DNA of 64,000 nucleotides from Romanomermis culicivorax (lineage: Eukaryota > Nematoda > Enoplea > Mermithida > Mermithidae). The translations under genes and the position numbers were made by a program. The stretch covers positions 1,488,001 to 1,552,000 of the forward strand of contig CAWUHX010000045.1 in the NCBI GenBank assembly GCA_963922205.1, written 5' to 3'. This document shows positions 4,382-39,378 of the stretch, piece by piece (the stretch's first letter is position 1; every line of letters starts with the position of its first letter). The notes beneath the pieces are model-generated. The model was given only the letters and a program-made list of their open reading frames with translations. It was not told the DNA's origin and did not search any database.

Positions 4382-4879
4382 CATAGGTGGCGCGACAGCG
4401 TCAACCTATAATATACTTGGCCCCCAAATTTCATGTCCCCCCCCCCTTAGAGCCAAAACGGTGAGAGCTAGAACCTTCGGGTTTTTTGCATAATATCGGG
4501 CATAGGGGCAAACTATGGGGTGCCTTTCGTCATTTCGCCTCTATCTGCAAGTGGTGCTCGGTGGGGCCCCAAAAATAGGTAAAAAACGCACTTTTTAAGG
4601 CCCCCCAGTTCCACCATGCCCAGCAATCGGTGTGCCATATCCAACCTCCATACTTCGGCCTAAGCATCTTGGGGGTGTAATCTCAAATGCGAATTTTTCT
4701 TTTTTTGAAATATGGCCTCAATTCAATTATATGGTTGTCCAAAGTCCCGGAAAATGCCAAATTTCCCAATTTTGTTATATAATACTATGGGTTCAAAAAA
4801 ATAATTTTTTGCAGCATAATGCACTACTAATTTTTTAGCAGTTTCAAATAAACCTGTAGCCTTATTGAGATTTTTGGGC

Positions 4880-7944: not shown

Positions 7945-8157
7945 AAGTTTACTGTAGTTGATGCCAGTTGAAGGACAAAATGCACGTGCTGCAGAATATA
8001 CTTTTTCACAGACATAGACAATTTTTTTTGAGAAAGAATGAAAATCCAATATAAAGGAAGTGAATTTTTCCCAACTTTGACCCAAGTTCTCAAAAATCTA
8101 GTCCACTTCTTTTTCTACCATGGCAACTGTCGAAGCAAGTATATTCTAATAAACTAG
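7945..8157 (+). repeat. 3' terminal arm of the Helitron-like element
   Basis: It is the inverted partner of 6449-6655 and ends TAATAAACTAG|T at the junction with the transposase. The hairpin expected just before the end is deleted. This may have left the copy unable to terminate rolling-circle replication normally. Confidence 0.7.
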
Positions 8158-8158
8158 T

Positions 8159-8560
8159 TTGGACATGCTTCAGCATCAATTTTATCCTGAGTTATTAGAG
8201 CGACAGCTAGAAGATTCCATTATTTTTATGCATGATGGTGCTCCTCCTCATTGGGGTCGCTCTGTTCGCAATTGGTTAAACCAAAAGTTCCCACAATGTT
8301 GGATTGGTCGCGGTTCGCCTAATATGTCATGGCCGCCAAGATCCCCTGATTTGATGCCTTGCGATTTTTTTCTCTGGGGTTTCATTAAGGCTAAAGTTTA
8401 TACCACTCGTCCTGCTAACATTCAGGAGCTTAAGGATCGAATTATTGCTGCTTTCAGTGAGGTTACTTATGAAATGCGTGTGAAAGTCTTATTGGAATAT
8501 AAAGAACGTTTGTACAAAATTATTGAAAATCATGGTGCTCATGTTGAAACGCGTGGTTGA
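8159..8560 (+). pseudogene. Mariner transposase, C-terminal part (second and third catalytic Asp)
   Basis: The frame begins with the codons for LDMLQ at the Helitron junction. FMHDGAPPHW carries the second catalytic Asp and SPDLMPCDFFLWG the third, with 37 residues between them, which makes the triad DD37D. The C terminus ends at a TGA after residues in AHVETRG. It is the continuation of the protein starting at 3734 and no frameshift is visible within it. The insertion alone therefore seems to have inactivated the gene. Confidence 0.85.
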
Positions 8561-13681: not shown

Positions 13682-13977
13682 TTATACGTCTAGCGACAAA
13701 TCTTGGGATCCAGAAGAAGGTTTGCTAATTGATTGGGACGGTTTCGACGGAATGACTGACTTTCTGGTTTTTGAAACGGGCACTGTGGATTGTTTCCTGG
13801 CCGTTGTCAGCAGCGCCGCGCTGGTTGCTGAAGTTGCCACTGCCGCTGAGGGGCTTTTTGACGCCGAAAACGGAGCGTAGGTCGACGACTTTTTTAAATT
13901 TTGACTCCTTTTCGAACCGCCGAAAACCGAATTGTCCGACTTGGATTTGGAATTGGAATTTTTCTGCTCCGCGGCTA
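13682..13977 (-). CDS. Receptor exon 13: Ser/Lys-rich cytoplasmic tail and stop codon
   Basis: After TGTGCAG| the frame gives about 98 residues of low-complexity Ser, Lys, Ala and Thr sequence (for example SNSKSKSDNSVFGGSKRS) ending LSLDV and TAA at 13682-13684. The phase matches exon 12. The composition suggests a disordered tail with many potential phosphorylation sites. Another frame on the same strand is also open, but only this one continues exon 12. Confidence 0.7.
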
Positions 13978-16900
13978 CTGCACACAAATACGTTATTATG
14001 TAAAAAAATTTCGGACTAAAAAATCAAGAAGTATGCTGACTAGTAGCATATTTTATCAGCAAATTTTATCAGAACACGGCAACACTCGATATTTCTCAAA
14101 ATGTGTAATGAAAGCAACATATCACAATCTTTTTTCAGCGTCAAAAATACCTAGTAGTTCAAAATCCACAGGTTCATTGACTTTCTTGGCGTGGAAGTAG
14201 TAAATGTTTTGCGTGCATTTTTCGGCAGATTTCAGGACCATCTACAAATCTCGATGGAGTATGCGTTGAAATCTCATTTAATGGCCAAGCGCTCCCGAAC
14301 TTGGACTTGATAGGCATGAAGAACTTTTGCTTTATCACTAGCTTTGAAATGAAAATTCGCCAGTTCAGGCTGCGAAAGAAGAGGTAGCATATTCAATTTT
14401 TGTCGGTGGAACATTTGACACCTTTATATACCACAAAGTGTGTATAAAAAATATAGTCTGTTTTTCTTGAAATGTTTCTAAATAATGAAAGTGGAAAGCA
14501 AATTGTATTTCAGATTTTCACGATGTGTGCTAAACATATCATATAGGACTGGACACTTGTAAACATACTGATATTACCTTTAACAATTTTTCCAGTGAGA
14601 AATTTTACAGTAAGATATCTATGTTAATAATATGACGACAGTGCTGACTTGTGTTCGCTTTTCAATTTGGAAGCATTTTATTAAAAACTATAGACAGACT
14701 TTGTTAATTGGGCACTAAAGGCACAAATTGACTGAAGTTTTAAAACAGAACCTGTAGCAGACTACAGCTAGTAACCAAATCCTGAGCTATTTAGAGTTCA
14801 ACGACCTCTCCTTGCACCACATTTACTGTAAGTAGTGTTCCCTTAAAAATTAGTCATCGCATTTTGGAAAAGAGTTCTGTGTTACAGTGGTTAAGGTTCA
14901 AAAGCGCAGCGGTGCTCTCTATACCCTAATGCTAAAAGGTTTAAAAGCGCAGCCAATGGTGGAAAAGTGTTTCAAAAGCGCAGCTAGGTAAATTTTCATA
15001 TGCTACGTGCTTCATGAAAGAATGTTATTGAATTTTCATTGACTTGACGAAGTAACCTAAAGCTACACAGTTTAAAGTAAAGTAGTAAAGTAAAGTAAAG
15101 TAAATTTTACGTTTAAAAAAATTTTTAACTTTTTAGTAAAACTACACAGTTTTTAAATATCAAACAGAAATGAACGCAATCTCATTAACGCATAAAAAAA
15201 TTCCAAAAAAATAGATAAATGTATAATAGGCGAATTGAACTTTGACTGCCTTTTCGATCTGAATTTCTGAAAACTCAGTCACTAAAATGTTGTGGCAATA
15301 CTGTGAGCACCTTAAAATGAATTTAGGCGAAGCACATTATGCTATAAATCATTCTCTAAAAGCGCGTCTGATTTCATATGCAAATCCATTGTTTCTGCCC
15401 TTTCTTTTGCGTCTCATTATTCTCCATTTTTCTGAGCAAACACGGAGAAGTTTTTGGTTAAAATTTTATGACATTCTATGCAAAAACTATGTTTTTAAAG
15501 CCTGTAAAAAGTAATGAAAAATATCATCCAAAAAAGGCGGCCTCGGGACATCTCTTACAGTTCAGTTTCGAGATGAACAGAAATCAGAATTTCATAAGCT
15601 TCCACATATGTTTAATGAAGTCAATAAGTCTATAAGTGGCCCTGTTTCACGAACGGAGGTTCAGAACAAACAGAAGACAAAAGAGGCTTATTATATATTT
15701 GCTGCGCTCTTGAAACACTTGCTTCGCTTTTGAAGTTTCCGGCTGCTCTTTTGAAATAGGCTGCGCTTTTGAACCGGCTGCTCTTTTGAACCGACTGCGC
15801 TTTTTATTCCCAACCGTTACACTAGTCTCACTGTAGACATGCTTATCTTAAGATTTTCTTAGTTATACGTTCCATAGATTTTAATTTCGAGTACCTACCT
15901 TCTTCCTGAATTGACTTGGCCAAGGCCGCCAAACAAGTCGCCACGAGGGCCATTTGGACGTGGCCGTTCGCTCGGGTATTGAAACAGCCTAACCGGGCGG
16001 CTCGGACGTACTTCAAAACGGCTAGAAAATTGACTCGTCGCCTTTCGACGTATATTTGCCGACAAATAATCAAGGCGGCTATGGCGGCTGACCTTTCCAC
16101 GCTACAGCTGTCATGAATGAGGACTCCGGGCCATTTGGCTCCCCTTTTTTGCTGATAAGTTTCGATCGTGCAACATAGTTCGGTAATTTGGAAACTACTC
16201 GTGTATGGCGGAACTTGGTTGATTGGCCAAACAAGTACGTGGATTACTGTAACCTAAATTATTGAATATTCTTTCCAAATGAGTATTGGGAAGAAAACTG
16301 ATGCTCATACAAATATAAGACAACGTGCGTACGCGGCCGTCTTTTTTCTCAAATCGACTCCAGCAGTTAGGACTACAAATTGAAAAAAGAAAATATTGGC
16401 TTAAGATGCACGCAGTCATCAACCTCCGAATTTCGTTGCACGTTTTTGCGTTTCGAGAGGCTCATTTGAAAACGAATAAAATATCGATCAGCAGCTGTAA
16501 ATCCTATCTTTGGCGTCTTATAACTTTTCTGTTGGAATTAATGCTCAGCATTGTCAATCGTTTATGACTAATCTAATTCTCGAGTAGAATTTATAGCTGA
16601 GAAAGATGCTTAATTGCAGTAGTGCATGTGAAAGCACATGGTGTTTAAACAACACTTCCTGACGTTCTAAACTACAGTTTTTTCACACTGTAGGATCAAA
16701 CTCTAATGCAATGGGAAAAATTCACCCCTAGTCCGGGCTTTTGGCGTAAAGTTAGACAATTCCGGTTACATGGTGAATTCTATCGGCCCAATTGGGGCTT
16801 CTACGGAATCCAGACGTTAGTTAACGAAATTAAACAAACGAGAAACGATAAATGGTAGGAAGGCAGCAGACGTCCTACAACTTTAACAATACCTCAAAAT

Positions 16901-19900
16901 TGCGTTGGGCATGTAAACGATTGAATCAAGAAAAAATTAATTGTGGTATCGCGATTAATTTTATAGACGTTTGAAATTGATTATTGCTGCTAAATGAAGG
17001 CATTGTAAATCATAACCAGGGCCGTGCACAAGGGGGGTGGGGGGCGGCCGCCCCCCCCCCCCCATTGAGGCAACATGCACACCGTATATCCGCGTAAAAT
17101 CAACATTTTCTGGGGCTATTCAGTAAAAAAATCTAGTCCGCCCCCCATGAAAAAGTCCTGCGCACGGCCCTGATCACAACTATTGTAGAGATTCTTTATC
17201 GTGTTTCAATAAATTTCTGTTGACGATAACTGACATAATTTGAAAAACATACAGACCGAAAATCATGTTCTAATCTCAAGTATTACTCATTCTACACTCC
17301 AAAAAGCCCAGGAGAGTTTTTTGTATTTTGAAACGAGCAAAGATTGTTCATTCATACTTTTCATACTTACTATGCATCTGAAAATTCTTAGCCCCCATTC
17401 ACTTCTCAATTAGTTGGCATAAATCATATTTATGAATCATACTAGATGAACTCGAGTCTTTAAATTCAGACAGATCTCCTGAGCCATACAACGTGAAAAA
17501 CCATAAAACGTACGTTTCAATGGGGGAAAATGATACTCTGGTCAAAAGAATGTAAAACTGGTAATTTTTATGCAAAAATTTTTTTGACGATTTTATTAGC
17601 ACATAGAAAAATAACGCATATTTTTCGAGTTCAAGAGTAATACTTCAAACTAAAGTCAAAAATTCTACCTAAAAAACGGGAAAATAGCAGTCCGAAATTT
17701 CGTTGCCGAAATTCAATATTTTTATAGTTTTCAATCACATTGACGTGGATGAAAATACTATTCTTGAATCAGAATCTTGAAATTTCTCTTCAGAATGAAC
17801 ATAAACAACATACCAGTCCGAACGTCTTCACGGAACCTTTTTTGACTTGGAATTTGATCGTATAGATTGCGTACTTATCGAACTTTAGAACGCTCACAGT
17901 TCGAATGCGTACCATGATGCAGAAACGCTGCTCATTTAATTCGCGGCTGCCGTTTGCCATGCGGCAAATATAGGCGTCAATCAGGGTTTTACTGCCGGCT
18001 TCGAAGTCTCCGATCCACAGCACGGTGCCGATCTTGGAAGTAGCATAGTTGACGAAAAATTTAAATTTAAACCATAATATAAAACATAAGAAGTTGAACA
18101 CAGAATTTCTCGAATCACTAATAATCATTGGCGACAGCTTCTTGATAGTTGTCAGACAACAATATAGGAAATACGAGGGGCATTACCCCTCAAAAAAGCC
18201 CGAAAAAACATTTATTACTGTGGCAAAAATGGTGTAACAGATGGTCAAATTTTTTGGAAAATGATGTGGGAGAAGTAATTCAGTGCATTTTACGCAGCAA
18301 CTTATAACACTTTCGTGTTATATAGGATTTAAAAATAGAGTGGCTTAAGCCCGAGCTCGAGATTTCCTCAACCGCAAAACATAAAACCTCGGTTTCAGCG
18401 GTTTCGTTAACGTCTAGATCATCCCGAGCTCGAGATTATCTCGACGTCGGGATCAGCTTGGGCTCAAAGCCGAGCTCGAGATGTCGGATTTCATTAAAAT
18501 TTTTTATTTTATCCTGATTCTGACGTCAGTTTCAGCCACACACAAAATTTAATCTTCCTATCGAGCAGGTTCAAGCCCGAGATTTTTTGTTTTGTTTTTT
18601 TATCGTCAATTATTAAAAATAAATTTTTGCGTTATCGATGGATAAATCGACATATTGAACGTGAACGAATTTTTGTGGATTGGACGAATCAGCTAGATTT
18701 TATGAATGCTGCCGAACTATAATTTTTCAACTTGATTCCAACGTACAAATGATGAAAGAATCAATAAAAGTAAGAAGAATAGTACAAAGAAAATATCAAA
18801 TTTTCGGCCACATTTTCAGCACATTTCATTCTGCCTCGTCCGGCCGTTAGTTTTTCATCCAGAACGAGCATCTGGATTCATGTTTTATATTTTTTCAACG
18901 GTATTTTCTAAACAGACACCCCATTTTGCATTTTTCTTCTGTTCTGCAGTTTTTGTAAAATATGTCCCGCGTACGTGTTTGAATGAATGACGTACTACAT
19001 TTTACGTATTTTTGCTATGGTCGAAATTAACTTGAGCTGAAGCTTAAACCTCAGGTTCACCCAGTTTTTTCCCCGACCTTCTTTCCATATTTGAGGAAAG
19101 ACCTTAAAAATTTTTTCCATTAATGACATTTTTTTGCATCGTGTGAAAAAAATTGCGCAACTTTTTGCTAAATTTAGTATATTTTGCATTATTCCAGCAC
19201 TCCGAAAAACTTGATCATATTTTATAGAAACATTAATAAAAGTAATGGATGAGGATAATGACGATGAATGAGTATAATGATGGTGGTGATCCTAAATAAT
19301 CGTTAATTTGGGAAATAAATGTTGTGATAGACACTCATTCTTTCTCTGATCGATAAATCTAAATTTTTAATTAAAAAGGCTTCGTCAAGAGTCACCAAAA
19401 GTTGTTCCACTTTTGTGGAAGAACCCTAAAAATTTTTTCAACATTCTCAAAATTTTTTCCACAAGTAGGGTCATTTACGGGGAAAAAACAATGGGTTCAG
19501 CTAATCCAGAGCTCGAACTTTTTAGAGAATTTCAAAAAAGATGAAACCAACGTCGTGCTCGGCTGAAACTCAGTTTCAAGCACTTCATACTGACGTCGGG
19601 GTGATCCTCAGTTTCAATTAGTGAAACCGGCCCCAGAAGTATAAGGATGTAAAATACGACATGAAAGATTGGTTCTAAAAATCGGAGCATTTTTCAAATT
19701 TAATTTCTCCGATGAATCATTATTTGCTTCCATATAAGAGAAGCATACAAAAGTGAAATAGATTCATACGTACATGCGGTTTTACATCATGCTGAAAGAC
19801 GTACTGCATAAGGATGATTACTGTAAAGCTAGTCAGACATCCATCAATTCGATTATATTGCTGCACTGTGTGCAGTGTGAAATGCATTAGACTGCTAGAT

Positions 19901-22900
19901 ACAGAAAAGCTGGTATTCACTACTGCAGATGGTAGGCAACATTAGAAACCAAAGTACAGTCTGTTTAGACGAAATTCTCGTAAATTGGGAAATAAAAAAA
20001 TCAGTATTGTATAGTATACCACACATTTCGCTAAACCGGTATTATTCATTATTATTAACTACAGTAAACCTTATTTTATCAATACACATTCATAAAAAAT
20101 AAACTCTTGCAGTCAACATTTCGTTTTGTTGTGTTTATTATTTTGCATAACTTTGTGATGTGATTGTTGCCCATAAAGGCCGGTAATATTTAGCGTTCGC
20201 TTTGTTGATAAATAAAAAGTTGTTCTACCAGGCAGGTCTCCCACATCGGCATGCTATTTTCAATTATCGACTGGAGTCACCATACCGGCCGAGTACCTGA
20301 GGCCTTTTTCAGCCATCCGAACTGGTCTCCCGCTGCCCCCACCACCTACCCTCCTTTCCCATCAATGCATCTTTCAATTGTCATCAGAAGATTTTACTAC
20401 AGAAGAGGTTTTACTGTAGAATTTATACTCAGAAGGTGTAAGGTTGGATGAAAAAACATTACAAACTACCTTATCAGACACGACCAACTCCCAAAAGCGA
20501 GCAAAATCGGGCGGTTTTGGCAGAACGGCTATAATCAAAGGCTTCATTTTCCAATCTAGCATTCGGCTGATGTTCATGGTGACGACCTTGGCATGGACGT
20601 AACAAGGAATGTTCAAATATTGTGTTTTACTCAGTGGGTCTCTGCGTGAGCCTTTCGGATCGGGTTCACACGGCCCCAAATTTTTCTGGACATATTCTTT
20701 AGCATTTTCGTAATCAGAAATGGGAACCATCAAATGCTGCGACAATACGAACAGTGCTTCTCCATTCAAAATCAAATTGCGATTTTTAGGGTCCGATTCG
20801 ATCAAGGTTTTTTCCAGTTCTGGTAGTCGTAGCCTTTCTCCTTTCAATCCTTAGAAAATCTTGTTTAAAATTTACCATAAATTGTTATCCAATAGAGTTG
20901 ATCAAACAGATGAAAGAACATAAATCGAATTTTTAAAAGTGTTTAAAAATGACACAAACATGAACTTCAAAATTAGTTGAGATTACTTTTCTGTAAGAAT
21001 GATAGAACTAATAAAACGCCTTTTGGAATAAAAAGTTCTCTTTGAATGACTGTCATTAATTTTTTATCTTCCCAGTTGTCAAGCTTACTCTGTCTTCGTG
21101 TATACACTGAGACAATGACCACAGATACTGCTACAGCTGCGACAACTGAAAGACCACCGATTGTGCCATACAAAATCACACTGTTCGGTGGATTGTCTGA
21201 AAAAGTTGAGGAGTTGTATGGTTGCATTGTAGGATGTAAAATTGAACAAAGAGTGCAAAATATCTCGAATACCAGAATCTAATGACAATGGTCCAAAATC
21301 TAAAAAAGGAGCAGCACCATCAAGGGAAATGGTATAGTTAATTTTGGATTATTAGTGTTTACTTTCTATGACTTTGACGTATTCAGATTTGATGTTCAGT
21401 GGCAAGCCTATAGATAAATAAAAATATTTTCATTGAAAATGTCCATGAATTCCAAACTTACAACTTTTGTGCAAATGGCCAACCACTGTGCCCTCTACTC
21501 TGTGTTCGGAGAAAGGACTGCACGTTCTGTACACAACTTCGGCTTGGCAGGTGTACTCACCAGCTGCAACCACAGGAATTTGGCGTAAACTCATTTCTCC
21601 AACCTAAGAAGTTTTTTGCAGTAGAAACAATTTCATCAACAGTCACATCATGAAAACAAAAAGATGCTGAAACTGTAGAATGTTTGGCATGTCTCACTTT
21701 TTATGATGACAGATATATGCTTTGCATCATGCATGCACATAGGGAATAGCAGGGTAAACCCTACCAGAAAATTTTTTACTATACGCTTGATTTCATTAGG
21801 CACCACCTTAGTGTTGCTGAGAATTCAGGTTTCAGGGACTTGATTGAAAAATTGAGTAGGGGATAATGAGTCATAGAACTAGAAGTTAGGCATATTAAAT
21901 CAAAGTGCTGCTGGGTTTTCTCAACAAATTTTAGGTCGTGAAATTTGATAAAAAAACTGACTTGGAAGCAATATGACAATTTGAAAAATCGACTGAAATT
22001 AATTATCAGTAAAAATGCTTCAAGTGAAATTTCTTTCACTACTGATTTATGGTGCAATAAACAAGTGTTGTAGTGTGTTTTCGCCGATTCGTAGGAGTTT
22101 TTCAAAAGTTTGTCGATTATTCAAAGACGCATGCAGGCTCGAAGTGGAGTGAGCTACGCCGACCACCAAAGGGCGTCTTACTGTAGTTCAGTTCCAGTAC
22201 ACGTGTGGTGAGTGCTCTCTTTATTATTAGTGTGTCCCTGTGCCTTTCGCATTATCTTTCTCAGCACGCAGGACTCTTCCTATTTCTTGCCCACACACTG
22301 GTTTTGTACGTAAGTGTGTTATTTTTGTGTTAGGTAAAAGTATCAGGAGAAAGTTCTCCTCTTTTGAGTTAGCTCTTTGGGAATTCAAATTAGGAAACCA
22401 ACGGTTTTCTAATTTGGGTTAAACTTTTGTGGGGTTTAAGTACATTAAGTAATTAGTTAATCGGGTAAGCACGGGTGTTGGAAACACCTGCATTAACGAT
22501 GATCCCTGGACCCAACTCCTGCCTGCTTTCATCCAAAGGCCCCGACTTATTTTTATGAATACAACACAAGAAGGCTTAATAGGATAAGAGAGTTTTTGCA
22601 TCATGAATATTGAATATGTACAGAAACCTAATGGGTCATTTATACTTGCTTTTTTCGGTGGAATGGAACAAAACAGAATGCAATCGACACAACGTTACCA
22701 AATGAGAGGGAAATTTTCGTTCTGTTCGGTTCGGTCGGAGGTTACCATTGGTGATTTTCTAGAAAATTGCAGTTATCCTCTCCGATCGAAAGTTGATTCT
22801 CAGGCTGAACATTTCAAGCTGTTTGCGATCAGTTCCGTTCCATTCCGCCGAAAAAAGCAAGTAAAAATGACCCTTAACTTGCTAATGTAAAACGTATCTG

Positions 22901-25900
22901 AACGAAAAGCGGATATCTCATGACATTGATCCAGTTCAATGGTGGCAAATCGACAAAGAAATGTACCCAAAACTTTGGTGAAACTTGAGGGGCGTTACTT
23001 CAGAGCACCAGCTATGGGTGTGCTCTCATACAGCTATTTAGTGGTGAGAGAATAATCTTTCAGCCATTACCAAATCATATTTCAGGCAAATCAGTAGAGA
23101 AGCTGTCATTTTTGAATATGATTTCATTTAATTGTTCAGATAAAAAAATAGATTTTGTATGCAAAGGATCAATTCTGTCATTAAATAAAGTTTTTATTGC
23201 ATAACTGCATCAGCATTATTTTTATTGCCGGATGGAGTTGTTCATTCTCCTGATCTGATACCTTATTTTTAAGACTGTGCGGATAATTATGAAAACCGTA
23301 AAATTCATCCTCAAAATCCTGGTTTCAGTTTCCGTTTTCCAATTTTGAGTTTCACCGTTTCAGTTTCAGTTTTTATTTTAGAAAAAATGACGGTTTTCAT
23401 GGTTTTGGTATCAAATTACCAAGCATAGCAAACTGTATCATACTAGTTTATTAGAAAATGCCCTGATTGGGAAAAAAACCTGATTAGAAAGATGTTAAGC
23501 TAGAAAACAACAGTTTTACTCACTAAAATTATGAAAATTTTTGTAAAACTATTAGATTTTACTGAAAAATGTTAAATTTCTTGAGAAAGTTGATACTGTC
23601 TAGTGCATCAGCTGTTGACTATAGTGTATCAAATGGTTGGTTTGTCCTGCATTCTTGGAAAAAATTTTTAAAACCGTCACAGGGTAATAGAATTTAACCA
23701 TCTGATGGTTTTACTCATTTTATTATAAAAATTTTTGTTTGGAACACACTTTTCACATATTCGGGACAGGCTTTTTGATGATCCCCTATACTTGAGCCTT
23801 GTTTTCGGGACACTTTTTTCACTGTTTTGGGACATGATTTTTGCTTATTTGGGACACAGTTTCCTACAAATGCATAGAAAATCGTGTCCCGAAACAGTGT
23901 AAGGCGTGTCTCGAACTTGCAAAAGTTGTGTCCAAAACAATAATTTTTCTGAAAATTACATGAAAAAATGAGTAAAACTGTTTGATTGTTATAGTCTGTT
24001 TTTCTTGAAATGCCTCCAAATTATGAATGTGGAAAGCAAGTAGTATTTCAGGTTTTTACGATTTTCTGATAAACAGTATATAATAGAGCAATGGAAATTT
24101 GCAAGCATACTGAACTAACCTTTAACAATTTTTCCAGTAAAAAATTTTACAGTAAGAGCTCTATGTAAGCGATTTTGACGACGATACTGATTTGTGCCAC
24201 TTTTCTATTTGGAAGCATTTTATAAAAAACAGACTATAGAATCTAAGAGTTGCATTAAACTTTTTTGGGGCAGCCATTGCGTCATCAATTTTAATGTCCC
24301 AGTCAGCCGTGGTATATTGACGTAAAATTTTACCGGTTGAAGCTTTGGGCATACTTTCTGCATCGAAGTCGAATTTTACATGTGGAAGCTTCAAGCGTAC
24401 TTTCTACATGGAAGTCAATTTCACCCATTGAAGCTTTGAGTGCACTGCTTGCATTGAAGTCAAATTTAACACATTAAAGCTTCAGGCATACTTTTTAGGC
24501 CTCCCTGTATCGCCCCTCACATTTAATGAAATTTGGATCATATTACATTGTCGACTATGCTCTCTACACCTCTTGTATTGCCCACCATGCTATGCAAATT
24601 CGGATCATCAGCTATACTTTTTACATTCACTCTATCATTCAGCACAGTTAAGGCGGCATACTTGGATGTACATGTTTTGTACAGGGGTATCTTTTGTGTA
24701 GTCCCTGTTTGGGCCAACATATCTACTGGTGCTTAAAAAGGCTTGGCCCATGATTACAGAAAAAAATGATGGTAGATGAAACTTATTCTGCCCCGGGCCT
24801 TTTAAGTTTCGTATGAAAAGCATGTTTGTATTTCATATTTCGTATGAAAAACATGTTTGTGGAGCTATCTTTTTGTATTTTAGCTCGCCCACTCCCACCC
24901 TTTGGTTGAAAAGTCTGAAAACCCTCATCTCTGGAAAATTATTGCCATGCATGTCGTCTCAGACGTCTCATTAGTAAAGAAGAGAAAACTCACTGTAGAA
25001 TTCAGTTCACCAATGATCGCATGCAAAGCCTTCAACGACACTCGCAAATATTTCAGTTGGAACGCTTCATAATTTTGAATAATGCAAGAAAAGTGTGGAC
25101 TTGCAGTATTGGGAGCGCATTCAGTTCCATCCGGAAGCGACAATGTCAGCACGGGGTTTTCTAATAAAAAAAGTACCTTGGCAATGATGAAATATACTAA
25201 CATACTTTATCCATTTGCTATTTCTTATCGTTAGGACAAAGTTGCAATTTCAGTATATCACCTTGATATTTAATATTTGTTAAGCATTTCATAGTACTAA
25301 TAGTTCTAAACACTGCTTTCTGTCTAAATATCCACTGAATAATTTATAAAATTTTTCATTATTTAAATCATACTACCATATTACATTCTATGTTCAAGTT
25401 TGTAAGTTAGAGAAATTAAAAGTTGCATCAGACATGAGTCTTATTGACCCTATATGTAAGGACTTCAGCCTCATAACTCGAAAGGTCGAATTCAGCAATG
25501 TAAAGTAGGAAATGGAAAATTTTGAATTTTTCATGTATTTCGACAAAGAAATGGCACTAGAGAAAGCACAGGCCTAGATTTTTCAGCAATTCGTAATAAT
25601 ACTTACCTAGTGACACAACGTAGAAGTACGTCTTAATGATCTCATGCTGGTCGACAGTAGTACGGGCGCTCAATTTTGTTTTGAAATATTTTTTCGTGTT
25701 TTCATGCACATCGAATGGTAAGAAATCCTGACAATTCAGGTTTCTGGTCCAGATGGGCTTCATTTGATCGATGATTTTTTCTTCTACAACGATTATGCTC
25801 CGGATATCACTACCACAAGTTATCTGGATTTTCGTCTCAGGCGTCATGTATATGGTTGACCCAAGGGCGATTTTCCGACCTTTTTCATTACGGAACATGA

Positions 25901-28900
25901 TAAGGTGTGAGTCTAAACTTATGAAAATTTATAAGTGGTTTTCATTATGTAGTATAGTAGAAGGTTCTCACTATCGCAGTTTGTGTATTCCATTGATGAA
26001 GTCATTATACTTTCAAGGTTCCTGCCATGAGCTGCGCATGGGGAACCGACAATCTTGTTATCTGTCGTGCAAGTGGTCAGTCGGTGAATGCCACATTCAT
26101 TTGGGGTGGGTGACGTACATGAATGTAATCCTGACTTTCGGACAATGCAGAATTTTCCTTCGCAAGTATCACTTTTCTGGCAAGACGAATGATGATCTGC
26201 ACCTTAAATAAAGGAATTTGAAGCAATATTCCTCAAAACGCTGTTTCCAATTCAGCTCAATTTAGAAATATTGGAATGCGTCCAGTCGGCGCATAGTCAA
26301 AAGGTGGTAGAAAACATGTGTGGTTTCACAAATAAGGTTATCAATGGATAATTTCTATCCTTCTAAATTTTTAACACAAGGCTCCCGCTGAAACATGTAA
26401 ATTTGAGAGTAGACACCATATTCAATAGAACAGTAAATGTTTTCCCAAACTTATGAAGAGCTTCAAAAATATATTTTTTTTATTTTATGTTTTTATTACA
26501 TTCATTTATTAATTCTTCCTTCCTATCCTTCTATTTTTCTTTTTTCATTTATATTTTTTTATATCTTCATTTTCATTTTTATTTAATTTTTATTTTCATT
26601 TTTAGCAACGAAGTCCAAAACATAACAAAACGAATGTTTTTTTACAGATGGGAAAATTCAGCTTAAAACAAGTTCAAGCAAAAATTATGCAAGTTTTTTA
26701 GTAGGGAAAAGAATGAAAATAGTGGTACTTATGCACTTTAGCGACCCATTTTTCCGAGTTCATTACCTTGTAGGGTATATACAGCAACGTACGCTAGCTG
26801 GGTTTTCAACGTGTAAGGAAACGCGCAAGTTTACCTCTCTGCATCTAAAAAATCTTTTTGGTACTGTAAGTATCAATGTGTAAACTCTGATGTATAAACC
26901 AGTAACTGCAGAAAAAGCAACCATTCATGTAGCGGTCTAGACAGTTCGGATTCAGCGCCAGAAATTTCAGCGCTGAATCCGAACTGTCTAGCTGAATCCG
27001 AACAAATAACAAAAAGGCTGGTGCTGACCATTTCAGCGCGAGCCTTTTTGTTATTTGAAAATTGAGATGGACCTTGGTGCTCAGACTGATTTGTTCCTCC
27101 TCAATCCCTGGAGTCAGAGGCATACATGCACAGCAATGAAATTCTGCTGCGAGTCAGTCAGGATAGAAGGGGTAGAATAGAATTTTTTCGTTCTTGATGA
27201 AAAAAAGGTCTTCTTACATTTAAGCATCGTATTCTCCAACATATATCAGACAGATATGTGAAATTTAACTTTTTAAAGTTTTGCTCTTACCTCTTTGGAA
27301 TCAAATATCTTTTGTTTAGAAAAATTGTTGAACTACAGCATCATTTCCATTTTTATGACGACTTTCTTTTCTCTCAGGCTCATTTTCCTTCGTCATTTTC
27401 TCAATCATTGCTGGGAAAGTCAAATCTGCTGGTGGTCAGCTGGGGGTCAATCAAAATCTGCTGGGGGTCAAAACACTCAAACCCCCCTGTGCATGTATGG
27501 TCAAAGGAAGAAGGTAAAATTGGTAGGAGTTTTGGTTTGATGGAGAGATAGCCAGGATTCGACCTTTGTGGTAATGTGATCCGTATGCTCCGGCTAACCT
27601 TTCTGAGGTTGGGGGATATAAATATGTATAAATCAATAAATGTAGAAAAAATCACCCATTCTTGTACCAGTCTAGGAAAGTTCTGCTTCAGTGCAATGGG
27701 CGCCAAGCCGTTTCGGCACTGACCATTTCGGCGCCTGATAATTTTAAGTGCAAAAACAAAATAATAAAAAATTAGTCTTTACTTCCCCTGTCGTCTTTTG
27801 AGGTTGTAGTCCTTGTGTGAAATAGTATATAAAAGAAAGATTAAAATGCAGTGCTAACAAGAGAAGGAAAAAGCAGAGGCGGGAAAAGAGTTGCAAAGAC
27901 AGGAAAAGACGTTTTTGACTGAAAATGTCGAAAGTGATGCTACAGAAACACACGCATAAAGTACAACAAACAAACAAATTGTCAATTATAGTATTTTTTC
28001 TTGAATTGATTCTAAGTTACGAGAAAGGGAAGCAAGTACTGACTCTTGAGATTTTCAGCCAAGCCGTATATCACATAGTACTAGAAACCTGTGAGCGTAC
28101 TTAACTATCCTAAAGCGATTTTTTGAAAAAAAATTCATAGTTAAAATTTTGTGTAAACGATTTCAGCGACAATGCTAATTTTTGTCAATTTTCACCTTAC
28201 AAGCATTTCATAAAAAGCAGACTAAAGGTAATGCAGTTTTACTTCCACATGGAAAAAATATCAGGCAAGACAAATTATAATCATGGATTTATATTAAAGT
28301 TTTGTCTGTCGTTTTTCGACAAGAATACAAATAAGAAGGAATGAGGTGAAAAAAAACTAAAGAAAACGGAAGAAAAAATTTAACAAAAGAAAAATTGGCG
28401 CAGAAGCTGCTGGCGCCGATCACTGTTTTTTCCACAAATGAGCCTAATGGTGGAAAAAATGTTCACAATATGGAAAAACTTTTCAGGATCTTTTCACAAA
28501 TGTGGAAGAATTTTTATGACTCTTGACAAAGTCTTTTTAATTGAAAATTTAGATTTATGGAGCAGGGAAAGAATGAAGGTCTATCATAAGATTTCTTTCC
28601 CAAATCAACAGCAATTTAGGATCACCATTATCATTATACTTATTCATCGTCATTATCCTCATCATGACTTTCATTGATGTCTCTATAAATAATAAGTCCT
28701 TGAAGTGTTTCGGAACGCTGGAATGTGCAGCAAAAAAATTTCGGAATTTTTGAACATAATGCATGTTGAAATTTTTCCCAGGTCTTTCCACGAGAGGAGG
28801 CCAGGTGAAAAAAAACTGGCGCCAATATGGCTGGCGTGTTTGTGTGAACCGGCGAATGCAGAAAAAGCTCAACCTTTGTACACTACGTGAAGACGCCCAT

Positions 28901-30329
28901 CAGGAGGGGACGCCAAGGCGAAACATTGTTCCCTTACTTTGGGGCAGTCATCTTCACGTAAATATCAGTTTACACTGTCGTATTCTTCGTGTATACATGC
29001 ACGTCGTATGTACAGCCTACCTTGCCCATACCACGTAAATTCAACAGCGGAAAAATTAGAATTCGTTATACCGTTGCTACAGTAAGAGTGAAATAAAATA
29101 TATTTCGGTTAATTACATAATCTCAGCAAAGAAGCAACATAGAGATGCGATATTTAAATTTCACTGGTGTGTACATTTCAATATCATAGTTTACTGTAGT
29201 CCAAAATTCCAAACACCCCTATAATAGTTACGGAACTTTTCAGAGCGAGTTCCCTCATTTGGCGTGAATCAGGCTACGTTTTGCTGAAGTTTATCTCACG
29301 AAACATAGATTTTCTGATCGGAAAAAGAATGCTGATTCTGAATCTACTTTTGCTTTTTTCCGCTGCGTAGTATTTTTAGACCTATCTGTTCCGGGGTAAG
29401 AACTATTCATCTATCGCTTGAATCGACGTCATACCTATAAGCTGTATAAACCTTACACGTTAAAAAACGGAAAAAATTCAAGTTTCACTGAAGTGCAAAG
29501 ATGCCCAAATTTCTACCAATTTTTTTACCAAAATCAACTGCTTCAACTCCAAAATCGTAAAATAGCCTTAGCTTTAGCCTAAACCTAAACTTAAGCCCAA
29601 TCCTAAGCCATGCTGAAGCTCAAGCCTACGCCTAGGCCTAAGTCTAAGCCTATAATTAAGCCTGAGCTTGAGCTAACATGACCTAAGGTAAATGGTGTTC
29701 TTGTTCGTTGATGTTAATTTTATTAAAAAGTAACGTATACTTTTTGTATTGAAATCGGTCAATACTCAGCAGAATCCCACGCTTTCAGGAATCGCTTCCG
29801 CCAGTTAAGAATGTAGAAGAAAAATGATCAGTGTCGAAAGAATAATTTAGCCGCAAAATAAGTTGAACTTTGCTTACACAAATGGTATTCGAAGCTTTTC
29901 GCTGTCCATTGTTCACGGGCCATGACGCATTTATATTGGCCGAGTCTGAAATGCTCATCCACTCGAACGGTGAATTTTGTGACATGGGAGCCAATCCTGT
30001 ATTTGGTTGAATTGATGCGAGTACCGTTCAACATCAAATCCACAGTGACCGCCGACTCGTTACATTTAGTCATGGCGCAGATGCATAGAACGTCGACCGT
30101 CGATCTGTAATGAACCATGTCCGCTTCGCCTCCGTATGCGTCGTATACTTTCAGTGTCGTTTCTTCTGATGTTACTGAAATGGAAAATACTGCCGGTTTA
30201 CGTCAAAACAAGTTCGGTTAGTGATCGACCATTCAACTCACCTTGTTCAGTTATGGTCAATATCAGCATCAAAAGGTAAGTCGGCTTCGGCATGACGAGA
30301 GCGACTGAACTAACCGACCGCACGGCCAT
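13682..30329 (-). CDS. Receptor-type pseudo-tyrosine-phosphatase with Ig-like ectodomain (13 exons)
   Basis: Exons, in transcript order: 30329-30242, 30174-29878, 26202-25972, 25912-25607, 25160-24994, 21603-21462, 21407-21363, 21299-21273, 21196-21089, 20849-20470, 18032-17814, 16151-15899, 13977-13682. They sum to 2559 bp, exactly 853 codons with the stop, and every junction keeps frame with GT..AG introns. The protein has a signal peptide, Ig-like domains (YKC and GEYTC motifs), a Cys-rich exon, one transmembrane helix, a divergent PTP domain and a Ser/Lys-rich tail. By analogy it would sit in the plasma membrane and bind a ligand. The catalytic motif is altered, so it probably binds rather than hydrolyses phosphotyrosine. 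Introns of 54-76 bp alternate with introns of 1-4 kb full of transposon debris. An exon for the missing WPD loop could be overlooked. Confidence 0.8.
14454..14700. mobile_element. TAGTCTG-ended MITE, copy 1
   Basis: The left end TAGTCTGTTTTTCTTGAAATG and a near-inverted right end (CATTTTATTAAAAACTATAGACAGACT) enclose about 245 bp. The sequence is closely related to 23992-24236 (shared TAACAATTTTTCCAGT, TTTTACAGTAAGA, TTGGAAGCATTTTAT). It lies in the last intron of the receptor gene. Confidence 0.75.
14883..15826. mobile_element. Element with inverted clusters of TTCAAAAGCGCAGC motifs
   Basis: Three copies of AAAAGCGCAGC lie at 14900-14990 and four or five inverted copies (GCTGCGCTTTTGAA or GCTGCTCTTTTGAA) at 15697-15806. 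Both clusters begin at a similar outer sequence (GTTACAGTGGTTAAGGTTCAAAAG on the left; on the right, inverted, GTAACGGTTGGGAATAAAAAG). Multiple subterminal repeats in inverted orientation are typical transposase-binding sites of non-autonomous DNA elements. There is no ORF between them. The superfamily is unknown. Confidence 0.55.
15066..15106. repeat. TAAAG-type microsatellite
   Basis: A short array of TAAAG units (AAAGTAAAGTAGTAAAGTAAAGTAAAGTAAA) lies inside the inverted-cluster element. Confidence 0.75.
15899..16151 (-). CDS. Receptor exon 12: PTP signature region with Cys replaced by Asp
   Basis: Between TATCAG| and G|GTAGGT the exon reads GVLIHDSCSVERSAAIAAL, which aligns with VVVHCSAGVGRTGTFIAL of active PTPs. 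His and Arg are kept, but the catalytic Cys position is Asp (codon at 16110-16112) and the invariant glycines of the P-loop are Ser and Glu. The rest (LIICRQIY..., ALVATCLAALAKSI) follows the two C-terminal helices. Asp at this position is known in D2 pseudophosphatase domains of some vertebrate receptor PTPs. The exon is markedly GC-richer than its surroundings. Confidence 0.8.
16152..17016. other. Receptor intron 11, right part, without a recognised exon
   Basis: I searched the minus strand here for the WPD-loop segment that would link exon 11 to exon 12 and did not find a convincing one. A weak candidate near 16310-16380 has a TTTGTAG acceptor and an open stretch, but it lacks a WPD or WPE motif. 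No mobile element was recognised. Confidence 0.4.
17017..17172. mobile_element. 156-bp hAT-like MITE
   Basis: The ends are CAGGGCCGTGC and GCACGGCCCTG. They are flanked by ATCATAAC and ATCACAAC, an 8-bp duplication with one mismatch. Both CAGGG-type ends and 8-bp duplications are characteristic of hAT elements. The interior is a G-run/C-run palindrome around GCGGCCGC. There is no coding sequence. Confidence 0.8.
17814..18032 (-). CDS. Receptor exon 11: middle of the PTP-like domain
   Basis: Seventy-three codons in phase 0 between TTCCAAG| and CTG|GTATGTT. IGTVLWIGDFEAGSK matches the strand following the FW..V motif in PTPs (V..IV.L..F.EG). RIRTVSVLKFDKYAIYTIKF resembles the strands before the WPD loop (tL.v.......R.V.hf.f). 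The 2.4-kb intron upstream contains no identified mobile element except diverged repeats. Confidence 0.7.
18033..19059. other. Intron 10 with a diverged AGCTCGAGAT module
   Basis: Three copies of GAGCTCGAGAT lie at 18352-18485, with flanks resembling the Helitron-like interiors at 7425-7580 and 12790-12960. The fragment is probably an old copy of that interior. The remainder has no gene or recognised element. Confidence 0.4.
19060..19460. repeat. Dispersed repeat, inverted partner of about 28430-28840
   Basis: Read in reverse complement, 28430-28840 shows the same order: GTGGAAGAA, GACTCTTGACAAAG/ACGAAG, AATTGAAAATTTAGAT, GGATCACCATTATCATTATACT. Both copies are in introns of the receptor gene, in opposite orientation and about 9 kb apart, so the pre-mRNA could fold between them. 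Confidence 0.6.
19461..20469. other. Receptor intron 10, left of exon 10, no identified feature
   Basis: The segment contains further diverged CAGTTTCA/GAGCTCGA-like words near 19500-19630 but no ORF with a recognisable domain and no clear element boundary. Confidence 0.35.
20470..20849 (-). CDS. Receptor exon 10: N-terminal half of the PTP-like domain
   Basis: About 126 residues from CTAAG| to AAG|GTAGTT. The second half follows the PTP scaffold: YLNIPCYVHAKVVTMNI corresponds to the KNRY..I..YDH.RV.L region, LIIAVLPKPPDFARFWELV to the ATQGP...T..DFW..V region. The phosphotyrosine-recognition KNRY motif is replaced (SKTQY) and QGP is lost, so substrate recognition is not canonical. Confidence 0.75.
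21089..21196 (-). CDS. Receptor exon 9: transmembrane helix
   Basis: After TTTTTCAG| the exon reads DNPPNSV and then a roughly 25-residue hydrophobic helix (ILYGTIGGLSVVAAVAVSV and on) followed by YTRRQ, a positive-inside stop-transfer signal. The donor is A|GTAAGC. This fixes the topology: exons 1-8 outside, exons 10-13 in the cytoplasm. Confidence 0.8.
21273..21299 (-). CDS. Receptor exon 8: 27-bp microexon
   Basis: Nine codons' worth of sequence (FGPLSLDS plus split codons) between TTTTTTAG| and G|GTATTC. It is required to bring exon 7 into frame with the transmembrane exon, and the phases fit exactly. It is too short to be convincing on its own, so this is the least certain exon; the alternative is read-through in another frame followed by a frameshift. 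Confidence 0.5.
21363..21407 (-). CDS. Receptor exon 7: 45-bp microexon
   Basis: Fifteen codons (LPLNIKSEYVKVIE plus split codons) lie between CTATAG| and A|GTAAAC. Both neighbouring introns are about 54-63 bp. The phases fit exons 6 and 8. It belongs to the juxtamembrane stalk. Confidence 0.6.
21462..21603 (-). CDS. Receptor exon 6: Ig-like domain, second half
   Basis: The exon lies between TTCTTAG| and T|GTAAG. AAGEYTCQAEV is a textbook Ig F-strand (D/A-x-G-x-Y-x-C). It is separated from exon 5 by an intron of about 3.4 kb that holds two MITEs, a Helitron end and dispersed repeats. Confidence 0.75.
22085..22600 (+). repeat. Dispersed repeat, inverted partner of about 34170-34670
   Basis: The reverse complement of 34170-34670 matches in order: GCGTCTTACTGTAG, GAGTGCTCTCT/GAGCTCTGTCG, TTATTATTAGTGT, TCTCCTCTTTTG, GGGAATTCAAATTAGGAAAC, GGTTTAAGTAC, GGGTGTTGG..AACAC, GATCCCTGGACCCAAC. 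The roughly 500-bp unit has no ORF and could be a solo LTR or SINE-like element. Confidence 0.65.
22632..22873. mobile_element. 242-bp MITE with about 40-bp inverted termini
   Basis: The left end (GGGTCATTTATACTTGCTTT and on to GGTGGAATGGAAC) is the near-perfect inverted complement of the right end (GTTCCATTCCGCCG.. to ..AAAATGACCC). GGG-starting termini suggest the PIF/Harbinger group, but the three flanking bases do not form a clean duplication. It lies in receptor intron 5. Confidence 0.75.
23443..23700 (-). mobile_element. Helitron-like 3'-end fragment
   Basis: Starting at CTAG (23443), the sequence CTAGTTTATTAGAAAATGCCCTGATTGGG is the same terminus as at 6449 with a decayed hairpin. After about 35 bp it diverges from the other copies. 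It is therefore a related but distinct subfamily or an old fragment. Confidence 0.55.
23992..24236. mobile_element. TAGTCTG-ended MITE, copy 2 (best preserved)
   Basis: It begins TAGTCTGTTTTT and ends AAAAAACAGACTA, flanked by TA on both sides. Copies at 14454 and 27988 share the internal order. The length is about 245 bp and there is no ORF. The TA target points to a Tc1/mariner-type source. It lies in receptor intron 5. Confidence 0.85.
24336..24500. repeat. Tandem repeat of about 52 bp, three units
   Basis: GAAGCTT recurs with GCATACTTTCT or GCGTACTTTCTACAT, then GAAGTC and AATTT, at about 52-bp spacing (24340, 24388, 24438, 24478). The units differ by 15-25 percent by eye. Confidence 0.6.
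24994..25160 (-). CDS. Receptor exon 5: Ig-like domain, first half
   Basis: The acceptor is TTATTAG| and the donor ACA|GTGAG in phase 0. It encodes a proline-leading strand (ENPVLTLSLPDGTEC), then FSCIIQNYEAF, which carries the first core Cys of an Ig domain completed in the next exon, and ends in the sequon NST. Confidence 0.7.
25607..25912 (-). CDS. Receptor exon 4: Ig-like segment
   Basis: About 102 residues starting after GTTTAG| and ending at G|GTAAG. KIQITCGSD resembles the B-strand Cys of an Ig domain. A later stretch YFYVVSL resembles the final strand but lacks the partner Cys, so the fold may use the other Cys (LNCQDF). The segment is rich in Lys and Ile, as in divergent invertebrate Ig domains. 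Confidence 0.65.
25972..26202 (-). CDS. Receptor exon 3: Cys-rich extracellular segment
   Basis: About 77 residues with nine cysteines (SCQ, TCEGKFC, SCTS, ECG, TCTT, PCAA, NCD), a density typical of a disulphide-bonded module such as an EGF- or insulin-receptor-like Cys-rich repeat. I cannot assign it to a family. The acceptor is TTAAG| and the donor A|GTGAGA. The downstream intron is only 59 bp. Confidence 0.7.
26465..26600. repeat. T-rich low-complexity tract
   Basis: A run of TTTTAT, TTCATT and TCTTCCTTCC words, over 70 percent T. It is intronic and no other feature is visible. Confidence 0.7.
26937..26991. repeat. Perfect hairpin, 22-bp stem, 11-base loop
   Basis: 26937-26958 is the exact inverted complement of 26970-26991. 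The stem starts CTAGACAGTTCGGATTCAGC. It lies 11 bp from a second perfect hairpin at 27003-27057. Confidence 0.9.
27003..27057. repeat. Perfect hairpin, 17-bp stem, 21-base loop
   Basis: CAAATAACAAAAAGGCT at 27003-27019 pairs exactly with AGCCTTTTTGTTATTTG at 27041-27057. The loop (GGTGCTGACCATTTCAGCGCG) resembles the loop region of a related sequence at about 27690-27740, which has GGCACTGACCATTTCGGCGCC. Confidence 0.9.
27545..27612 (-). ncRNA. tRNA-like or SINE-like Pol III promoter sequence
   Basis: On the minus strand TTAGCCGGAGCATACGG resembles an A box, and GGTCGAATCC, about 25 bases further on, resembles a B box with one base missing (GGTTCGAATCC). The spacing suits a tRNA-derived sequence. 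I cannot fold acceptor and anticodon stems, so a functional tRNA is unlikely; a SINE or pseudo-tRNA is more probable. Confidence 0.3.
27988..28224. mobile_element. TAGTCTG-ended MITE, copy 3 (diverged)
   Basis: The right end reads AAAAAGCAGACTA and the left TATAGTATTTTTTCTTGAATTG, with the internal GAAAGGGAAGCAAGTA and AAGCATTTCATAAAAAG blocks of the family. It lies in receptor intron 2. Confidence 0.65.
28430..28840. repeat. Dispersed repeat, inverted partner of about 19060-19460
   Basis: See the partner for the shared blocks. This copy contains several GTGGAA / TTCCAC words and ends near CTTTCCACGAGAGG. It lies in receptor intron 2. Confidence 0.6.
29565..29677. repeat. Degenerate hexamer array of TTAGGC (GCCTAA) type
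   Basis: About 19 consecutive six-base units read GCCTTA GCTTTA GCCTAA and on, with one phase slip, through CCTAGG CCTAAG TCTAAG to about 29677. The consensus GCCTAA is the complement of TTAGGC, the telomere repeat of many nematodes. It lies about 200 bp downstream of receptor exon 2 in intron 2. It could be an interstitial telomere remnant or an unrelated hexamer minisatellite. Confidence 0.6.
29878..30174 (-). CDS. Receptor exon 2: first Ig-like domain
   Basis: The exon is bounded by TTTCAG| and T|GTAAGC and contributes about 99 residues. Cysteines in LCIC and LGQYKC are placed like the two core cysteines of an Ig fold, the latter in the usual D/G-x-Y-x-C setting. Two N-glycosylation sequons (NES, NGT) fit an extracellular location. 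The phase-1 boundaries on both sides are typical of Ig-domain exons. Confidence 0.75.
30242..30329 (-). CDS. Receptor exon 1: start codon and signal peptide
   Basis: The ATG at 30329-30327 is followed within 29 codons by a second in-frame Met and a hydrophobic stretch TYLLMLILTI ending in TEQ, a good signal peptide. The donor is G|GTGAG, leaving one base for the next exon. I chose the upstream ATG because it is in frame; the second Met (13th codon) would give a more typical signal peptide and may be the real start. Confidence 0.7.
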
Positions 30330-34169: not shown

Positions 34170-34670
34170 ACCCTCATTTTGTTGTATTTGAAAAATGGGT
34201 CAGGGCTTTGGATGAAGGTAGGCAGGGGTTGGGTCCAGGGATCATCCTTAATGCACGTGTTGCCAACACCCATACTTATCTGAAAACTGAACTTCTTAAA
34301 GTACTTAAACCCCACCTTCAGTTTCCTAATTTGAATTCCCAATGAGTTAATCCAAAAGAGGAGAACTTTGTCCTAATAATTTTACCTTCGAAAATAAGAC
34401 ACTTATGTATAGAAACAATGCATAGGTGAAAGTATAAGGAAAGAGCCCCACGTGCTGGGAAATACAATGAAACGCACAGGGATGCACACTAGTAGGCCAA
34501 AAGTACACTAATAATAATACACGACAGAGCTCACTGCACGCCTACTGAATCTGAGCTACAGTAAGACGCCCATCAATGGTCCCTGTCGCTCGCTCCAATA
34601 TGAACCTGCATATGTCTTCGAAAAATTGACAAACTATTACGAAAAATCATTAAACTCGGCGGAAACACAC
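34170..34670 (-). repeat. Dispersed repeat, inverted partner of 22085-22600
   Basis: This copy reads in reverse orientation with the same block order, ending CTACAGTAAGACGCCCATCAATGGTC. A third, shorter relative may lie at 43180-43330 (CCTACAGTAAAC..AAACTATTCTGAAA.. GGAAACACACTACAGCAATT). Confidence 0.65.
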
Positions 34671-35458
34671 TACAACAATTTTTAGATCTAATACGGTTAA
34701 AACATTTTCTTCAACAGCCCAGAAAGAAAAGACAACTGAGCATTTACTACCATTCGCAAGTTTTTCTCACAAATTGGGTAGTCTTGATGGAGCTGGAGAG
34801 ACTGTTACAAAGGTTTCCTGCTCCAAAACTGTAATTTTTAAACTAATCGTTAAAAAACTGTAGCTTAATTTGCACTAATCATCTTAGGATGATAAAAATC
34901 TCGAAATAATCAGTTTTCCTGTAAAATAAACTGCCATATTGCCACCTGATATCGCTGATATTTAGGGGATTCGCCCATATTATTTATTAGTAAATAATAA
35001 AATTTCTGTAGAACTGAAACGAACGAAATAGTATGCTTTCTAGTAATACTCCATTTTGAAAAGATAGATACAGGGAGAAATTTTCAGCAAAGATAGTCCT
35101 ACTTAGGGGTCGGGGATCGGCTTCCTCCAAAAGACTTGCTAGCTGAGCTACATCTTGAACTACAGCTTAACTCTACGTTTTTATATTATGTTAACCTCTA
35201 AACGTATCGAAAAAGCTAAGCTGCAGCTCACCTTTCTCGACATGGCTCAACTTCCTTAACTTCGTGTATGTGGATTTGTTTTTTGGTGCCGTTCTATATC
35301 GATTTTATCCACTCAATTTGTTATCGGTTGTTTCGGGTTGTTTATATTTTTCTGGTTGGAGGTGAAAAATATCAACTTTAAAACAGTTGATACCAGAAAC
35401 ACACTCCATGTAAAGTATACGCAATGCACCACATGACTTGAACTCATTGAGAAAGGGT

Positions 35459-38731: not shown

Positions 38732-39378
38732 CTAACCAATGAAATATTGGTTATCACAGGTCGGCCTCCAGTATCCTGCCAGCTGTGTGAAAGGGGGGCG
38801 GAAAATTTTGTTGGCCAATTCTATGGTGTTCATGACATGTGGCTTCTGATGATCATCTTTCCTCAACAAGAAATGGGCACAAGCCTTATCTTTACCTTTA
38901 ACATATTCAACTTTATAAGCGTAATCTTGTAAGTTGATGGCTAGTCGTTGTACTTGGGAATCACAGTGTTTTTCATCCTTGAGCCATTCAAGGGGCTTGT
39001 GGTCTGTGCAAACAATAACTTCTTGGCCATAGACGTATGGCAATACATACAAAATCTGTAAACAATGGCAAGACATTCACACTCTGTCAAGCTGTATTGG
39101 GATTCAGTGTCCGTAAGGATGTGGCTGTTGTACATGATAGCCCATTTGTCTTCTCCACTTTCTTGGTACAATATCACACCAATGGCTATTGTGCTTGCAT
39201 TGGTTTGATAAATAAACTGAGCTTTCCCATCATGAAAGGGGTAGTGGTCTTTCTTGATACCTTCGAATGCTTTTTGATGGTCATGGCAGAGTAAGGCATA
39301 TAATGAACTTGATAACATGGCTAATTGGGCAATGAAACGCTTGCACTTTGTCCAGATCAGTGGTGATTCCTTCCGCAC
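38732..39378 (-). pseudogene. Gypsy RNase H region, frameshifted
   Basis: The upstream frame (39378-38941) contains FIYQTNASTIAIGVILYQ, where the first catalytic Asp of RNase H (normally TDAS) is Asn, and SQYSLTECECLAIVY with the catalytic Glu. The downstream frame (39076-38732) has VCTDHKPLEWL and VEYVKGKDKACAHFL, the usual end of the domain (normally ...ADALSR). The two frames overlap, showing a frameshift around 38950-39070. Confidence 0.8.

What the first reader, a model, noticed from the sequence alone, without database searches (positions are those of the whole stretch)
13682..30329. A complete 13-exon receptor pseudophosphatase can be read from raw sequence
Independent GT-AG boundaries on the minus strand give intron phases that fit at every one of 12 junctions, and the total is exactly 853 codons. 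The architecture (signal peptide, Ig-like, Cys-rich module, Ig-like, helix, PTP-like, Ser/Lys tail) is coherent. An Ig-PTP receptor with this Cys-rich module may be lineage-specific.
Basis: partly seen in the sequence, partly recalled or inferred. Interest (0 to 1): 0.75.

Follow-up and report, generated by a model that had tools for sequence, protein, structure and literature searches.

The report
Split gene for dead-phosphatase membrane receptor

Summary
Partly confirmed. On the minus strand, ten exons (E1-E10, 30329-15899) join in phase at 9 of 9 junctions with GT-AG ends, giving 702 open codons. Joining E8-E9-E10 raises the Pfam Y_phosphatase score to 59.6 bits (35.5 without E9; E10 and E8 alone 26.2 and 12.3), support independent of phase. 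A hydrophobic transmembrane-like segment lies at 361-379. The catalytic Cys is Asp (HDSCSVERSA) and WPD is WPI, so it should be inactive. PTPRZ shows the same Cys-to-Asp change at 521-570 of its chain.

Not supported: "complete", "exactly 853 codons", Ser/Lys tail. After E10, the direct joint, 62 one-exon and 4925 two-exon routes all fit the phases. The last region looks coding, but in another frame (codon score +0.209 against -0.020). The "Cys-rich module" has 4 Cys in 158 residues. Ig-like segments are plausible from motifs; Pfam and single-exon models do not confirm them. Likeliest role, inferred: non-catalytic docking receptor. No genome, relative or transcript was at hand.

The parts
30242..30329 (-). 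E1: start codon and signal-peptide-like segment (residues 1-29)
   Evidence: hydropathy 1.66 over residues 9-27; no signal-peptide predictor was run
29878..30174 (-). E2: first Ig-like segment (residues 30-128), GQYKC motif at 108
   Evidence: no Pfam Ig match
25607..25912 (-). E3: second ectodomain segment (129-230), 2 Cys; fold unknown
24994..25160 (-). E4: first half of third segment (231-286)
21462..21603 (-). E5: second half of third, Ig-like segment (287-333), GEYTC motif at 301
   Evidence: codon test did not favour this frame
21363..21407 (-). E6: 45-nt exon (334-348), phase 1-1; by its phases the frame also fits without it
21089..21196 (-). E7: transmembrane-like segment (361-379, mean hydropathy 2.56) followed by YTRRQR
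20470..20849 (-). E8: juxtamembrane region and start of PTP domain, KTQY (459) where KNRY is expected
17814..18032 (-). E9: middle of PTP domain
   Evidence: 59.6 bits with E9, 35.5 without
15899..16253 (-). E10: end of PTP domain, WPINQVP at 593 and HDSCSVERSA at 631
14151..14241 (-). candidate tail exon MVLKSAEKC...DFELL; codon score 0.209 over 30 codons; unproven
14274..14341 (-). candidate alternative last exon ASDKAKVLHAYQVQVRERLAIK*, in phase with E10; unproven
13725..13977 (-). probable last coding region in frame ...KFQFQIQVGQFGFRRF...VETVPIN*; exact acceptor unknown

Best explanation
A real, split animal gene encodes a type I membrane protein: signal peptide, ectodomain of about 320 residues with two to three Ig-like segments, one transmembrane helix, a juxtamembrane stretch of about 75 residues and a single PTP-fold domain, followed by a tail of unknown exon structure. 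Shown here from sequence: the exon chain E1-E10, PTP homology across E8-E10, loss of the nucleophile (Cys to Asp) and of the general acid (Asp to Ile), one PTP match in the part read. Inferred: the protein reaches the surface, binds a ligand by its Ig-like part, has no phosphatase activity, and uses the PTP fold (net charge +16) as a docking platform that holds phosphorylated or acidic partners away from active phosphatases, in the manner proposed for the receptor pseudophosphatase PTPRU.
For: Phase and GT-AG at 9 of 9 junctions, 702 open codons. PF00102 at 2.1e-15 over profile 12-223 of 234; putting E9 between E8 and E10 adds 24 bits. Solved-structure search: 11 matches at E up to 0.01, all PTPs, best PTPRZ 7e-07. 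HDSCSVERSA against HCSAGVGRTG and WPI against WPD. PTPRZ carries VHDEHGG at the aligned place of its second domain (alignment of -1.5 bits; second domain by position 521-570 of 618). Transmembrane-like segment. Codon scores. Net charge +16 over 456-702. PTPRU as an inactive receptor that binds substrates of related phosphatases (PMC7320164, abstract and passages).
Against: No transcript, no homologue, no genome (relatives of E10 sought in viral and prokaryote contigs, none). No Pfam Ig match. Asp and Glu in the phosphate loop should weaken phosphotyrosine binding, so the decoy role would have to use another surface. E5 fails and E3, E4 barely pass the codon test. The tail is unresolved.
Confidence: 0.6

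Rival explanations
1. One reading: 13 exons, 853 codons, Ser/Lys-rich tail.
For: Phase-compatible paths exist, and 13682-14023 is open for 113 codons. The region is G+C-rich: 1 of 702 overlapping non-exon windows reaches its value. A first scorer that let multi-exon paths end only at 13682 ranked one 853-codon path (15846-15719 plus 15310-15283) 4th of 5073.
Against: Thousands of other paths fit the phases. The Ser/Lys frame has GC1/2/3 of 0.37/0.58/0.51 against 0.48/0.38/0.51 for E1-E10; the other frame has 0.54/0.35/0.60 and codon score +0.209 against -0.020. When paths may end at any stop, 182 of the 200 best end at 13725 and 8 at 13682, and the best 853-codon path ranks 2079 of 397,827. 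A genuinely Ser/Ala/Thr/Pro-rich tail would also show a high GC2, so this is not proof. 113-codon frames are not rare here: 37 in the window, 4.75 on average in shuffles.
Confidence: 0.1
2. Inhibitor of an active receptor phosphatase: the dead domain caps the active site of an active partner, like the second domain of RPTP gamma in its head-to-toe dimer.
For: The head-to-toe model was proposed for RPTP gamma/zeta (PMC2638020, passages), and the zeta second domain has the same Cys-to-Asp change.
Against: In that model an electropositive active site meets an electronegative second domain, whereas this domain has net charge +16. The sequence matches the first domain of PTPRZ better than the second (15.3 against -1.5 bits).
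Confidence: 0.12
3. Decaying gene (pseudogene) whose loss of catalytic residues and messy 3' end are signs of decay.
For: The stretch 14369-14151 has coding-like pieces in different frames with stops between.
Against: 702 codons over ten exons are free of stops, with splice sites kept and coding-type codon bias in most exons.
Confidence: 0.13
4. Two separate genes, an Ig-like membrane protein and a cytosolic PTP-like protein, joined by mistake.
For: The E7-E8 joint rests on phase and consensus only; the Pfam evidence covers E8-E10.
Against: E7 ends with basic residues after the hydrophobic segment and a GTAAG donor, and E8 continues in the matching phase; the intron between them is 239 nt.
Confidence: 0.05

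Closest known systems
PTPRU (R2B receptor pseudophosphatase)
   Same: membrane receptor with an inactive membrane-proximal PTP domain, proposed to compete for substrates (PMC7320164, abstract and passages)
   Different: PTPRU keeps its catalytic Cys and has two PTP domains; its subgroup has MAM, Ig and FN3 domains (PMC10815196, passages); here Cys is Asp and one PTP domain is seen
Second PTP domain (D2) of PTPRZ, subgroup R5
   Same: His-Asp in place of His-Cys in the PTP loop; the like change in PTPRG D2 is recalled, and the PTPRG paper I looked into (PMC3447766, passages) did not speak of it
   Different: a second domain beside an active one, with a carbonic-anhydrase-like ectodomain (abstract in listing); the new domain aligns better to D1, so the change looks convergent
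IA-2/PTPRN (R8 pseudophosphatases)
   Same: receptor with an inactive PTP domain (R8 named a pseudophosphatase group in PMC2638020, passages); single domain (recalled)
   Different: IA-2 keeps Cys and has no Ig-like ectodomain (both recalled)
LAR-type R2A receptors and C. elegans CLR-1
   Same: Ig-like domains in a receptor with a PTP fold (PMC10815196; PMC5942785; passages)
   Different: they also have FN3 domains and a first domain that is active or predicted active; no FN3 was matched here
EGG-4/EGG-5 of C. elegans
   Same: invertebrate pseudophosphatases (reference titles and listings)
   Different: not receptors and acting on MBK-2 (partly recalled)

Membership tests
Classical protein tyrosine phosphatase fold (PF00102) | profile match over the domain | tested here: met
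   2.1e-15, 57.4 bits, cut-off 20.9, profile 12-223/234
Active classical PTP | HCxxGxxR[ST] phosphate loop with catalytic Cys | tested here: not met
   HDSCSVERSA: Cys is Asp, both Gly replaced, Arg kept
Active classical PTP | WPD-loop Asp | tested here: not met
   WPI
Active classical PTP | KNRY phosphotyrosine loop | tested here: inconclusive
   KTQY at 459 lies just before the profile match; aligned by eye, Lys and Tyr kept
Receptor-type PTP | signal peptide, ectodomain, one transmembrane helix, cytoplasmic PTP domain | tested here: met
   hydropathy only and order of exons; no dedicated predictor was run
Receptor-type PTP with Ig domains | Ig-fold ectodomain | tested here: inconclusive
   no Pfam Ig match at E up to 10; E2 model all-beta but pLDDT 51.5, Ig receptors 2vsd and 4ety at ranks 8 and 16 but no match at E<=0.001; E3 model pLDDT 38.8
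Human RPTP subgroups R1-R8 | subgroup ectodomain and number of PTP domains | tested here: inconclusive
   no FN3, MAM or carbonic-anhydrase match and one PTP match in the 702-residue model; subgroups without such domains are not excluded by this, and subgroup make-up is partly recalled
Pseudophosphatase | no phosphatase activity | not testable with these tools
   inferred from sequence only

The most novel reading that the evidence does not exclude
A receptor class outside the human R1-R8 subgroups: an Ig-only ectodomain with a single, wholly inactive PTP domain whose nucleophile has turned to Asp independently of the PTPRZ second domain, working as a non-catalytic phospho-signalling receptor in its lineage.
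Probability: 0.3. Interest if true: 0.45.

Novelty: new member of a known kind. Interest (0 to 1): 0.27.

Why it matters
In the human receptors that I saw described, inactive PTP domains mostly sit beside an active one. A receptor that has only a dead domain, with Cys replaced by Asp, would be a clean natural case for asking what the PTP fold does without catalysis. The case also shows that phase agreement alone does not fix an exon chain: it held for a tail that codon statistics contradict.

Tried and rejected
Relatives: E10 protein in viral contigs (3 pattern matches, none confirmed) and genome contigs (38, none confirmed); neither collection is of eukaryotes. Whole genome: not held. RNA families at gathering threshold and tRNAs in the window: none, so no clue to the organism. 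Solved structures for the ectodomain: none at E up to 10. Pfam on candidate tail pieces: nothing near a cut-off. Missing exons: 145 stop-free stretches of 25 or more codons in the nine introns; the twelve best by codon score were read by eye and none looked like an Ig or PTP piece; the other 133 were not read. Paralogues in the window: tblastn at E up to 10 gave the gene's own exons and one 17-residue match at E 4.2. Head-to-toe inhibition was considered and lowered because of the +16 charge. Papers: 8 searches; one search returned nothing. No Ig-only, single-domain receptor pseudophosphatase stood out in the titles and abstract beginnings listed, which is weak evidence: most subscription papers are not held, and the only organism terms were nematode(s), Caenorhabditis elegans and invertebrate. 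Papers looked into, by passages only: PMC2638020, PMC7320164, PMC8269279, PMC5942785, PMC3447766, PMC10815196; PMC3447766 did not help.

Full report
What was claimed.

The core is there. From the ATG at 30329, ten exons to 15899 join with GT-AG ends and matching phases at 9 of 9 junctions, giving 702 codons without a stop. Phase agreement is weak evidence alone, so I looked for independent support. The Pfam Y_phosphatase profile gives 26.2 bits for the E10 reading frame alone and 12.3 for E8 alone and does not find E9, but 59.6 bits for E8-E9-E10 joined, 35.5 with E9 left out, 35.2 for E9-E10 and 24.4 for E8-E9. The joined match runs over profile positions 12-223 of 234. Two of the nine junctions, E8-E9 and E9-E10, are thus supported by homology. 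The others rest on phase, splice consensus (6 of 10 exon ends with GTRAG within 30 nt, 0 of 5000 random draws as many, with the caveat that ends were chosen partly by consensus) and codon bias (chosen frame best in 9 of 10 exons, leave-one-out; E5 fails, E3 and E4 pass narrowly).

Architecture. Residues 9-27 and 361-379 are hydrophobic (1.66 and 2.56 on the Kyte-Doolittle scale), the second followed by YTRRQR: I take them as a signal peptide and a transmembrane helix. E2, E3, E6 and E7 begin and end in phase 1, as does the pair E4+E5, the pattern usual for extracellular modules (recalled). E2 and E5 hold GQYKC and GEYTC, with a Cys about 50 residues before, as in Ig domains (motif recalled). 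But Pfam finds no Ig family at E up to 10, and single-exon models are poor: E2 all-beta, pLDDT 51.5, pTM 0.41, with 1005 Foldseek matches at E<=10 and none at E<=0.001; the 50 listed are mixed, mostly beta folds, lectins first, with Ig receptors 2vsd and 4ety at ranks 8 and 16. E3: pLDDT 38.8, pTM 0.28, not searched. Ig-like is plausible, not shown. The Cys-rich label does not fit: 11 Cys in 323 ectodomain residues, 4 in the 158 of E3+E4.

Pseudophosphatase. Against PTPRZ the signature HCSAGVGRTG reads HDSCSVERSA and WPD reads WPI. The nucleophile and the general acid are both gone; the Arg is kept. KTQY at 459 stands where KNRY is expected, by eye. The PTPRZ chain 6j6u also shows VHDEHGG in its second half (521-570 of 618), aligned to the same place in a weak match of -1.5 bits, so Cys to Asp occurs naturally in a PTP fold. 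The new domain matches the first PTPRZ domain better than the second (15.3 against -1.5 bits), which suggests an independent change.

The tail. 73 two-exon paths give 853 codons. The last region is G+C-rich like an exon (1 of 702 overlapping non-exon windows as rich), but the Ser/Lys frame has GC1/2/3 of 0.37/0.58/0.51 and codon score -0.020, while the frame ending at 13725 has 0.54/0.35/0.60 and +0.209; E1-E10 together have 0.48/0.38/0.51. Two simple scorers were trained on E1-E10. The first let multi-exon paths end only at 13682 and ranked an 853-codon path 4th of 5073. The second let paths end at any stop: 182 of its best 200 end at 13725 and 8 at 13682, and its best 853-codon path ranks 2079 of 397,827. 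Both are trained on one gene and the second has an exon penalty set by hand, so I use them for the frame only, not for exact exons. A third ending, ASDKAKVLHAYQVQVRERLAIK*, is also in phase (rank 238).

Function. With no catalysis expected, the inferred role is docking. PTPRU, an inactive receptor, binds substrates of related phosphatases and is proposed to compete for them (PMC7320164, abstract and passages). The head-to-toe inhibition model of RPTP gamma (PMC2638020, passages) sets an electronegative partner surface against an electropositive active site; this domain has net charge +16, which speaks for binding acidic or phosphorylated partners instead. No step of this was tested.

Novelty. 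A receptor pseudophosphatase is a known kind. An ectodomain with no FN3, MAM or carbonic-anhydrase match and a single PTP domain fits none of the human subgroups as I recall them, but eukaryote proteomes could not be searched, so lineage-specificity is open.

Noticed in passing
   Followed up: yes
14452-14688, 23990-24230, 27984-28227: A repeat of about 240 bp in three copies, two in introns and one beyond E10 (66-81% identical), with inverted ends: looks like a small DNA transposon.
   Followed up: partly
22060-22569 with 34177-34683; 19191-19493 with 28421-28724: Two inverted pairs, 71% and 81% identical.
   Followed up: no
3692-4411 and 8153-8560: Transposase pieces of Tc/mariner type: PF01498 at 7e-08 for the first; the second had no Pfam match at E<=0.01 and is judged by eye.
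   Followed up: no
38941-40002 and 47098-48645: Retroelement pieces: RNase H (9.7e-14), a reverse transcriptase match below its cut-off (19 against 29.6 bits) and an aspartic protease (4.3e-11).
   Followed up: no
50654-55037: Possible Polinton-like element (by eye): DNA polymerase B match in 53053-53514 (PF03175, 1.4e-12), with open frames before and after it.
   Followed up: no
about 29560-29715: Degenerate repeat resembling TTAGGC units in intron 2, seen by eye.
   Followed up: no
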